Source: Archangium violaceum (GTDB taxonomy: Bacteria > Myxococcota > Myxococcia > Myxococcales > Myxococcaceae). From it: a DNA stretch of 64,000 nucleotides. The notes beneath the pieces are model-generated. The model was not told the DNA's origin and did not search any database. It saw only the letters and a program-made list of their open reading frames with translations. The stretch is from the NCBI RefSeq assembly GCF_016859125.1, contig NZ_CP069338.1, positions 5,271,501 through 5,335,500 on the forward strand. The letters run 5' to 3'. Position 1 is the first letter of the stretch; every line of letters starts with the position of its first letter. This document shows, one piece after another, positions 6,831 through 8,737 of the stretch. The translations under genes and the position numbers were made by a program.

Positions 6831-7526
6831 CTAGAGCGCCTGGAGGAACGGGCGCAGGAAGTCATCCGCCTCGGCGGCGATGCGTCCGAGCGAGTCCACC
6901 AGCTCGTGCCCGTCATCCACCTCGACGAGGCGCACGTGGCGCTTGTCGCGTGCCCACTCGCGCGAATAGCGGATGTCCGTCGTCGTATCCCGCCGCCCGT
7001 GGATGAGGAGCGTGGGCACGCGCACGTCCGGCCAGCCGCCCGAGCGCGCCTCGATGGTGTCGAGGTCCTGGATGAGGCCGAAGTGCACGCGTGCCTCGCG
7101 CTTCTCCGCGTAGTCCTGCGTCTCCAACCAGCCCGTCTCCCGCCAGCGGCGCAGGCCCTCCTCGCCCACGGTGCGCCGCATCTGCTCCGAGGCACGCAGG
7201 GCCGGCGCCAGCAGCACCAGCGCGCACACCCGCGCGTCCTCCTCCGCCACGCGACAGGCCGTCAGCCCTCCCAGGCTGGAGCCGAAGACGATGGCCCTGT
7301 CCCGCTCGCCTCCAATGGCGTCGCGCACCGTGCGCATCATCGCGCCCAGGCTCAGGTACTCGAGCGAGGGCCGCCGCAGGTTCAGCCGCTCCAGGTGGAT
7401 GCCCTGGCGCGCGTAGTGCTCGGCGAGCGCCACGCCCTTGGCGGACTGGGGCCCCGAGGCGAAGCCATGGAGGTAGAGCCAGCGAGGACCCGCGAGGGCC
7501 GGAGAGATACCGGGCGCGACGTTCAT
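6831..7526 (-). CDS. YqiA-type alpha/beta hydrolase (esterase)
   Basis: 231 residues matching the small YqiA/UPF0227-like hydrolases. It has an early YLHGFASGPQSAKG oxyanion loop (about 18-31), nucleophile elbow FGSSLGG with Ser84, acid residue in HGRRDTTTD and catalytic His in DDGHELVDSL. There is no signal peptide. Family members hydrolyse short acyl esters; the physiological substrate is unknown. The ATG at 7526 immediately precedes the conserved core. A perfect 13-bp hairpin lies upstream at 7599-7631. Confidence 0.85.
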   Translation of the reverse strand: MNVAPGISPALAGPRWLYLHGFASGPQSAKGVALAEHYARQGIHLERLNLRRPSLEYLSLGAMMRTVRDAIGGERDRAIVFGSSLGGLTACRVAEEDARVCALVLLAPALRASEQMRRTVGEEGLRRWRETGWLETQDYAEKREARVHFGLIQDLDTIEARSGGWPDVRVPTLLIHGRRDTTTDIRYSREWARDKRHVRLVEVDDGHELVDSLGRIAAEADDFLRPFLQAL

Positions 7527-7598
7527 GGCGGCGCACTCTACCCTCGGGATTTCAGGAGACCCGTCGGGCGATGGAGACCGGGCTCCAGAAAGAGGATG

Positions 7599-7631
7599 AG
7601 GGCCCCGGGTTGGTGGGGAACCCGGGGCCCT
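7599..7631. terminator. strong GC hairpin, possible terminator or RNA element
   Basis: A perfect inverted repeat: the left arm (7599-7611, AGGGCCCCGGGTT) pairs with the right arm (7619-7631) around a 7-base loop. That is a 13-bp, almost entirely G-C stem. There is no T tract on the plus side; on the minus side the following bases read catcctctttc. It lies upstream of both neighbouring genes, so it would not terminate either annotated gene. It could end a transcript coming from the intergenic region to its right. Confidence 0.5.
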
Positions 7632-7670
7632 CCAGCTCGCGTCGATTCCGACGGAGACTCGACTCTCGGT

Positions 7671-7733
7671 GCGGGGCTACAGCACCATCCGTGCCAATGG
7701 GCCAAGTGGCCGGACTTCCTGGCACAGCCCCGC
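7671..7733. ncRNA. candidate structured RNA between divergent genes
   Basis: The 404-bp gap between the divergent genes at 7526 and 7931 holds a nested structure. GCGGGGCT (7671-7678) pairs with 7726-7733, GTGCCA (7691-7696) with 7720-7725, and GGCC (7700-7703) with 7708-7711 around an AAGT tetraloop. The three stems are collinear with a 12-base left bulge. To the right (7765-7800) the base composition becomes AT-richer, including TAAAATGAATATACA, which may hold a promoter. No known RNA family was recognised. The alternative is a protein-binding DNA site or chance. Confidence 0.35.
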
Positions 7734-7930
7734 CCGATTCGCGGACGGGTGGAACATGCTGGCGCGGTGCGTTTGTAAAATGAATATACACCGCGAGTTC
7801 CAATTCCCTGGATTTCCTGGGGGAATCGACCGTGTGAAGGCCTGTCCTGAAACAGGACGATTTCGTGGGAGGGTGACTCGAATCAGGACACCCCCCGGGC
7901 GTCCGGCGCCAGGGCACAGGTGAAGGTGGT

Positions 7931-8737
7931 ATGCCCGGGCGCATGACGAATGCTCCCGTGGCGCTCATCACCGGCGGCTCGCGTGGCGTGGGCCGCGCCC
8001 TCTCCCTGCGGCTCGCGAAGGCCGGTTACGACATCGTCTCCACCTACCGGCGCGACGCCGAGGCCGCCGACGCGCTGTGCAAGGAGGTGGAAGCGCTCGG
8101 ACGCCGCTGCCGCACCGTCATCGCGGATCAACTCGAGCCGGCCAGCCTCCATGCCGCTTTCGATGTGATCCAGCAGGAGTTCGGCGGGCTGGATGTCTTC
8201 GTGGCCAACGCCGCTTCCACGGCCTTCACTCCACTGATGCAGATGAAGCTCCACCAGATGGACAAGACGTTCAACGTCACGGTGAAGAGCTTCCTGCTGG
8301 CGGCCCAGCGCTCGGTGCCGCTGATGGAGGGCCGCAAGGGCCGCATCGTGGCGGTGTCCGGCATGGACTCGCGCATGCCGCTGCCCTTCCATGGCTTCCT
8401 CGGCGCGATGAAGGGCGCCATGGAGATATTGGTGAAGTACCTGGCCGCCGAGCTGGCCTCCTCCGGCATCCGCGTCAACGCCGTCAACCCGGGCTACATC
8501 GACACCGACTCCAGCCGCTTCTACATGGGCGATGCGTGGGCCGCGCTCGAGGCCCAGGTGAAGGACAGCGTGCCCGTGGGCTACGTGGCCAGCGCGGATG
8601 AGATCGCCAAGACGATCGAATGGCTGTGCTCCGAGGGCTCCTCGTACGTGAACGGCCAGACGCTGGTGGTGGATGGGGGCCTGGAGGTGAACTACGCCAT
8701 GCAGTTCGCCAGCGCGCTCACCCAGTCCTCCAAGTGA
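7931..8737 (+). CDS. FabL-like short-chain dehydrogenase lacking the catalytic Tyr
   Basis: 268-residue SDR. The cofactor motif is [11 protein letters not shown] (13-23). The region NAASTAF and the C-terminal [10 protein letters not shown] place it near the FabL type of enoyl-ACP reductase, in which the active-site spacing is Tyr-X6-Lys. Aligned to that pattern, Lys161 is kept but the Tyr position is His154 (FHGFLGAMK); Ser143 lies in AVSGMD. It may therefore reduce poorly or have a different chemistry. ATG at 7931 has GAAGGTGGT just upstream; an in-frame ATG at 7943 is possible. It is followed 75 bp later by the PhzF-family gene in the same direction. Confidence 0.82.

What the first reader, a model, noticed from the sequence alone, without database searches (positions are those of the whole stretch)
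7599..7800. Perfect 13-bp hairpin and a three-stem nested structure between divergent genes
This 404-bp gap has a 13-bp perfect stem (7599-7631) and, 40 bases on, collinear stems 7671-7678/7726-7733, 7691-7696/7720-7725 and 7700-7703/7708-7711. An AT-richer patch follows at 7765-7800. Together they could be a small RNA gene on the minus strand: promoter, structured body, terminator.
Basis: partly seen in the sequence, partly recalled or inferred. Interest (0 to 1): 0.5.

Follow-up and report, generated by a model that had tools for sequence, protein, structure and literature searches.

The report
Gutted sigma-54 protease gene remnant
This hairpin is most likely the stop signal of a small transcription unit whose enzyme gene was lost in this soil bacterium, leaving the gene's special promoter and its terminator side by side; it looks like a small-RNA gene but probably began as an emptied protein gene.

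Summary
On the minus strand it is terminator-like. The "three-stem body" is mainly promoter DNA: it holds a sigma-54 -24/-12 site (TTGGCACG-N4-GTGCT, 7697-7681), and its pairing in four genomes does no better than column shuffles. A dyad, TTTACA and this site form a layout found in 48 of 96 family genomes (reversed control 2 of 96). In 28 of 35 loci examined a trypsin-like lipoprotein gene follows directly. One relative, G002, carries such a gene here, between the same promoter and hairpin; the window, G001 and G004 lack it. A second locus (G085) keeps only the protease's last ten codons between promoter and terminator. Best reading: promoter and terminator left after loss of the coding sequence. 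A noncoding RNA of about 80 nt (not 150-200) is predicted; whether it is made or does anything is untested. Outside the window, the same layout drives a conserved sRNA-like unit in 6 of 6 Archangium-group genomes.

The parts
7873..7891 (-). First activator-like site, GTGTCCTGATTCGAGTCAC (imperfect dyad)
   Evidence: Sequence; the bases GTGTCCTG and TCAC are kept in G001, G002 and G004. Role inferred.
7843..7858 (-). Second activator-like site, perfect dyad GTCCTGTTTCAGGACA, 79 bases before TTTACA
   Evidence: in 14 of 20 compared promoters a GT[CT]C..GACA dyad lies 77-79 bases before TTTACA. The strict dyad GTCCTG-N3-CAGGAC itself is not rare in the genome: 4 places, reversed control 6.
7774..7779 (-).
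   Evidence: role unknown
7750..7758 (-). CATGTTCCA, counterpart of the GGAGCA..GCTCC/GCACC element of related promoters
   Evidence: Kept in G001 and G002, deleted in G004; correspondence judged by eye
7681..7697 (-). Sigma-54 promoter -24/-12: TTGGCACG-GATG-GTGCT
   Evidence: Only match of TGGCAC[GA]-N5-TGC on either strand of the window; 13 of 13 specified bases same in G000, G001 and G002 against 136 of 233 other aligned columns; consensus TGGCACG-4N-TTGC(T/A) in PMC9765219 (passage), one mismatch
7591..7671 (-). Predicted noncoding transcript, about 81 nt (start placed about 12 bases after the GC of -12 by rule of thumb; end approximate)
   Evidence: no ATG, GTG or TTG in it. Inferred, not observed.
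7598..7632 (-). 14-bp hairpin, terminator-like on the minus strand
   Evidence: 33, 34 and 31 of 35 bases shared with G001, G002 and G004
7588..7597 (-). T-rich tail ATCCTCTTTC behind the hairpin (no unbroken run of T)
6831..7526 (-). Alpha/beta hydrolase gene (UPF0227/Abhydrolase), left flank
7931..8737 (+). Short-chain dehydrogenase/reductase gene, right flank

Best explanation
The stretch 7588-7891 is, on the minus strand, what is left of a sigma-54-dependent transcription unit that held a secreted trypsin-like (Trypsin_2) lipoprotein gene. Activator-like dyads, TTTACA and the -24/-12 promoter remain upstream and the unit's terminator remains downstream; the coding sequence between them is gone. 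If the activator and sigma-54 polymerase still act there, the unit makes a noncoding RNA of about 80 nt that ends at the hairpin. Shown by comparison: the promoter layout, its tie to this protease family, the intact gene at this very place in one relative, and the hairpin's conservation. Inferred: that the change was loss rather than gain, the start site, and that transcription still happens.
For: The cassette exists only in G000, G001, G002 and G004; the same gene pair is about 65, 64, 2 and 85 bases apart in G003, G005, G015 and G008. In G002 a 260-aa ORF, Trypsin_2 by Pfam, lies between DNA matching the promoter part and DNA matching the hairpin. The layout TTTACA-N65..95-TGGCACG-N5-TGC is in 48 of 96 family genomes, reversed control in 2 of 96, and the protease gene follows in 28 of 35 loci examined. 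The own genome keeps one intact protease gene with this promoter. G001 keeps bases matching the gene's last codon, stop and 3' UTR. G085 shows the same outcome elsewhere: promoter, last ten codons VKARLAEIGL and stop, terminator.
Against: On the tree of the flanking genes loss needs three events (G000, G001, G004), whereas one gain in G002 plus a loss or deletion in G004 needs fewer. The remaining 3' parts in G000 and G001 begin near the same point, which independent deletions would not predict. The G002 protein is closer to a G032 protein (78%) than to the own-genome copy (65%), and the G032 gene lacks this promoter. No protease codons are recognisable in the window itself. Activity of promoter and terminator is untested, and the terminator scan alone is not above chance (1 found, shuffles mean 0.4, sd 0.8).
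Confidence: 0.7

Rival explanations
1. A working sigma-54-dependent small RNA of about 80 nt kept by selection, whatever its origin.
For: Promoter core and hairpin are better kept than their surroundings in G000 and G001, both without the gene: 13 of 13 core bases and 33 of 35 hairpin bases against 159 of 250 upstream positions. The same layout drives a separate conserved sRNA-like unit in 6 of 6 genomes of the genus.
Against: The part before the hairpin folds like its shuffles (z -0.36) and is about as diverged as background (27 of 39 aligned positions between G000 and G001, my count on the alignment). In G004 only 8 bases lie between promoter and the hairpin core, so no RNA body is left. No Rfam match and no match to the model of the other unit.
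Confidence: 0.15
2. The cassette began as a short sigma-54 unit without a gene, and the G002 lineage gained a protease gene in it.
For: Fewer events on the tree; G000 and G001 have similar 3' parts; the G002 protein is nearest to one from another genus.
Against: The promoter layout is that of this protease family; a gain would have to land in frame behind a fitting promoter and before a terminator; G001 holds bases matching the gene's end; G085 shows direct loss in a similar unit.
Confidence: 0.12
3. Leader with attenuator: the sigma-54 promoter drives the hydrolase gene (6831-7526) and the hairpin is a regulated terminator before it.
For: Same strand; only 71 bases lie between hairpin and gene start.
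Against: G003, G005, G015 and G008 have the gene without the cassette. TAGAGTGCGC directly before the gene is present in G000-G005, six of the eight gaps compared, and could be its own -10 region. No Rfam leader.
Confidence: 0.03

Closest known systems
Sigma-54 promoters of Myxococcus xanthus, e.g. Nla28 targets (PMC9765219, passages seen)
   Same: -24/-12 sequence fits the published consensus with one mismatch; repeated sites upstream
   Different: The dyad GTCC-N8-GGACA does not resemble the published Nla28 half-site CT(C/G)CG(C/G)AG; activator unknown; no gene behind the promoter
Trypsin_2 lipoprotein genes of Myxococcaceae with this promoter layout (found here)
   Same: Same upstream elements in the same order; in G002 such a gene stands at this place
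   Different: No coding sequence in the window
Pxr, sigma-54-dependent sRNA of myxobacteria (PMC5568312 and PMC5684412, passages seen)
   Same: Short unit behind a sigma-54 promoter with an upstream enhancer region, ending in a stem-loop
   Different: All pxr homologues examined in that paper lie between nla19 and an NADH dehydrogenase gene; this unit does not. Sequences were not compared.
Transcribed pseudogene remnants in bacteria (e.g. PMC2753549 and PMC7067036, search listings only)
   Same: Regulatory signals outlive the coding sequence
   Different: Here nearly the whole coding sequence is gone and promoter and terminator stand 50 bases apart

Membership tests
Sigma-54 promoter | GG and GC of -24/-12 at the right spacing, close to TGGCACG-N4-TTGC(T/A) | tested here: met
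   TGGCACG-GATG-GTGCT, one mismatch to the consensus in PMC9765219
Sigma-54 promoter | Dependence on RpoN and an activator | not testable with these tools
   Needs expression data
Intrinsic terminator | GC-rich hairpin followed by a T-rich tail | tested here: met
   14 pairs, tail ATCCTCTTTC; the tail has no unbroken T run, so strength is uncertain
Promoter family of the Trypsin_2 lipoprotein genes | TTTACA 65-95 bases before the sigma-54 core, dyad 77-79 bases further up | tested here: met
Promoter family of the Trypsin_2 lipoprotein genes | Protease gene directly downstream | tested here: not met
   Absent in the window locus L138 and in G001 L131; present in G002 L130
   70.6% of cells paired against 67.7% in shuffles (67 of 500 reach it); helices at 64.5, 87.5 and 53.8%. 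Against this: slid versions give only 25-36%. Only four sequences, so weak.
   No RNA data; about 81 nt predicted
Pxr sRNA | Place between nla19 (pxrR) and an NADH dehydrogenase gene | tested here: not met
   Flanks are a hydrolase and a dehydrogenase/reductase; place of pxr from PMC5568312
Pxr sRNA | Sequence similarity to pxr | not tested
   No pxr sequence was at hand; no pxr family came up in the Rfam scans

The most novel reading that the evidence does not exclude
Loss of the coding part of sigma-54-controlled protease genes has more than once left promoter-terminator units that live on as new small RNAs under the same activator: this locus and the one in genus g15 would be small RNAs born from gutted genes, beside an established sRNA of the same regulon.
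Probability: 0.15. Interest if true: 0.75.

Novelty: new variant of a known kind. Interest (0 to 1): 0.42.

Why it matters
A hairpin that looks like an sRNA gene is explained by gene history, a warning for sRNA prediction from stems alone. The comparison also exposes a small sigma-54 regulon of secreted hydrolases in Myxococcaceae with a conserved sRNA-like unit, and gives loci where the idea that small RNAs arise when a coding sequence drops out between a live promoter and its terminator can be tested directly.

Tried and rejected
Sigma-70 promoter in the AT-rich patch: none in 7400-8000. Rfam: no gathering match in the window; in nine related loci one weak match only, ar14 in L175 (31.1 bits, gathering 58.8), which concerns another unit. 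tRNA/tmRNA: none. The hairpin as a dispersed repeat: the strict pattern has one place in the own genome, counted on both strands because it is a palindrome; weaker matches of the search (L005, L006, L008) were looked at by eye, two of them are similar hairpins elsewhere. Pxr: rejected on position only. Model R1 of the conserved sRNA-like unit against the window and three relatives: no match up to E 10. Short matches of the G002 promoter DNA in other genera (L114-L126, L128, L129) were dropped; those printed (12 loci) looked like coding DNA or chance by eye. Nla28 as activator: its half-site does not fit. Papers: searches of the held open library listed nothing that describes this unit or regulon; only passages of PMC5568312, PMC5684412 and PMC9765219 were seen, the rest as listings.

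Full report
Observation. The four stems are present as described. The first has 14 pairs, not 13. It is the only perfect hairpin of at least 13 bp in the window; none appears in 10 shuffles of the window, and 1 of 2000 shuffles of the gap has one. The three-stem stretch also folds better than its shuffles (z -3.3, 0 of 500). The 404-base gap lies between an alpha/beta hydrolase gene on the minus strand and a short-chain dehydrogenase gene on the plus strand.

Where it is. The window lies in a 12.68-Mb single-contig genome. Two congeneric genomes have contigs of the same length as records of Archangium lansinium (G001) and Archangium violaceum Cb vi76 (G004), so the genus is Archangium or very near it; this is an inference.

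What relatives show. The same divergent gene pair is found in the five other genomes of the genus and in G015 and G008. The stretch between the genes is long only in G000, G001, G002 and G004; it is about 65, 64, 2 and 85 bases in G003, G005, G015 and G008 (lengths depend a little on the start codons taken). So the finding sits in a cassette that only part of the genus has. In G002 the stretch is about 1182 bases and holds a complete 260-aa ORF. Pfam calls it Trypsin_2; NNHC, DMTAL, GSSGSP and a lipobox-like LTAC are in it (their meaning is recalled).

What the three-stem body is. On the minus strand it contains TTGGCACG-GATG-GTGCT (7697-7681), a sigma-54 promoter by the consensus printed in PMC9765219 (passage), with one mismatch. 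It is the only match of TGGCAC[GA]-N5-TGC on either strand of the window. The 13 specified bases are the same in G000, G001 and G002, against 136 of 233 other aligned columns upstream. Across four genomes the drawn pairs do no better than column shuffles (70.6% against 67.7% of cells, 67 of 500 reach it; two pairs changed on both sides, reached by 161 of 500). Versions with slid partners pair at only 25-36%, which speaks for the structure, but it was drawn from one of the sequences and rests partly on the invariant promoter bases. With four sequences the test is weak.

A promoter family. A dyad GTCCTGTTTCAGGACA (7858-7843) stands 79 bases before TTTACA (7779-7774). The layout TTTACA-N65..95-TGGCACG-N5-TGC was sought in 96 genomes of the family: 48 have it, 43 of them once; the reversed pattern hits 2 of 96. 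In the six genomes of the genus there are 11 places and no control hit. Of 54 places listed (my count) I examined 35 loci (L130-L164): in 28 a match to the trypsin-like lipoprotein gene comes next in the same direction. The seven others are the window locus, its G001 counterpart, two loci before a metalloprotease lipoprotein gene (L134, L157; L134 by Pfam Peptidase_M10 and PPC), one before a lipoprotein gene that looks amidase-like to the eye (L159), one sRNA-like unit (L139), and L158, below. Of 20 promoters compared, 14 have the dyad 77-79 bases before TTTACA and 6 do not by the pattern used. Among 36 KTTACA sites in 49 sources (413,503 bases, chosen because they hold such loci, with overlap) all 8 sites with the dyad also have a sigma-54 site behind; 4 have only the latter and 24 neither. 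The own genome keeps an intact protease gene with this promoter at G000:C1:10176361-10177119.

A second gutted unit. In G085 (L158) the promoter is followed after 4 bases by the last ten codons VKARLAEIGL and the stop, then a terminator-like hairpin. G084 and G086 have a promoter of this type (with CGGCA in place of TGGCA) and a matching 3' end, and no protease match between; the other 4 of 7 genomes searched of that genus have no match to this stretch at all. Neighbouring ORFs on both sides match those around the intact gene in G034 (mechanical ORFs). G085 and G086 are draft assemblies, so a fault there cannot be wholly excluded.

Loss or gain. On the tree of the two flanking genes G002 and G004 are sisters, G001 joins them, and the place of G000 is unresolved. 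Loss needs three events; a gain in G002 needs fewer, and the 3' parts left in G000 and G001 begin near the same point, which also fits gain or one shared loss. I still favour loss: the promoter is that of this protease family, G001 keeps bases that match the gene's last codon, stop and 3' UTR, and G085 shows the process directly. Against it, the G002 protein is nearest to a G032 protein (78%) whose gene lacks this promoter.

How it would work now. If sigma-54 polymerase and its activator still act, a transcript would start near 7671 and end near 7590, about 81 nt without a start codon. The part before the hairpin folds like its shuffles (z -0.36) and is about as diverged as background (27 of 39 positions between G000 and G001, my count). 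So there is no sign of selection on an RNA body. Promoter core and hairpin (33 of 35 bases) are better kept than the surroundings (159 of 250) in these two genomes without the gene. That leaves room for a function, or for recent loss. G004 has lost TTTACA and nearly all bases between promoter and hairpin, which looks like decay.

An sRNA-like unit of the same regulon, outside the window. In 6 of 6 genomes of the genus the same layout drives a separate unit of roughly 85-115 nt, with no convincing ORF. In four genomes it shows CCGTCA-ACTCCTCCTCCTC-TGACGG (the loop is two bases shorter in G002) and a hairpin with a run of T; G003 and G005 have a shorter form with CTCCTC in a loop. A covariance model built on those four with a structure that I named finds 12 of 96 genomes at E 0.01: the four (by construction), G005 and G003 at 1.9e-11 and 2.4e-10, and six others only weakly (5.6e-4 to 0.007). 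RNAalifold on six sequences supports the terminator (two pairs changed on both sides) but draws the 5' hairpin differently. That the loop acts against Shine-Dalgarno sites is a guess from its letters.

Verdict. The hairpin is a terminator and the body is a sigma-54 promoter; together they are most likely the shell of a lost protease gene. The single locus is modest; the repeated pattern and the sRNA-like unit in the same regulon are worth a specialist's look.

Noticed in passing
G000:C1:5050790-5050904 + (L180/L200); L175, L177, L183, L139, L182: Conserved sRNA-like unit behind the same sigma-54 layout in 6 of 6 genomes of the genus, with a C-rich loop (CUCCUCCUC) and a strong terminator; no ORF seen.
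   Followed up: partly
L158/L190 (G085), L172/L191 (G084), L171/L192 (G086): At a place where G034 has the intact protease gene, these genomes keep promoter and terminator; G085 still has the last ten codons.
   Followed up: partly
G000:C1:480557-480652 - (L134); L157 in G080; L159 in G018: The same promoter layout stands before other secreted-hydrolase-like lipoprotein genes: a PPC/Peptidase_M10 metalloprotease and an amidase-like one (by eye).
   Followed up: partly
L009 (G001) and L010 (G002), cassette between the flanking genes: GCGTCAG/CTGACGC in G001 and GCATCAC/GTGATGC in G002 could pair with two compensating changes; in G002 the arms flank the whole protease ORF (seen by eye).
   Followed up: no
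window 7527-7545: TAGAGTGCGC directly before the hydrolase start is present in G000-G005 and absent in G015 and G008; it may be the -10 region of a leaderless mRNA.
   Followed up: no
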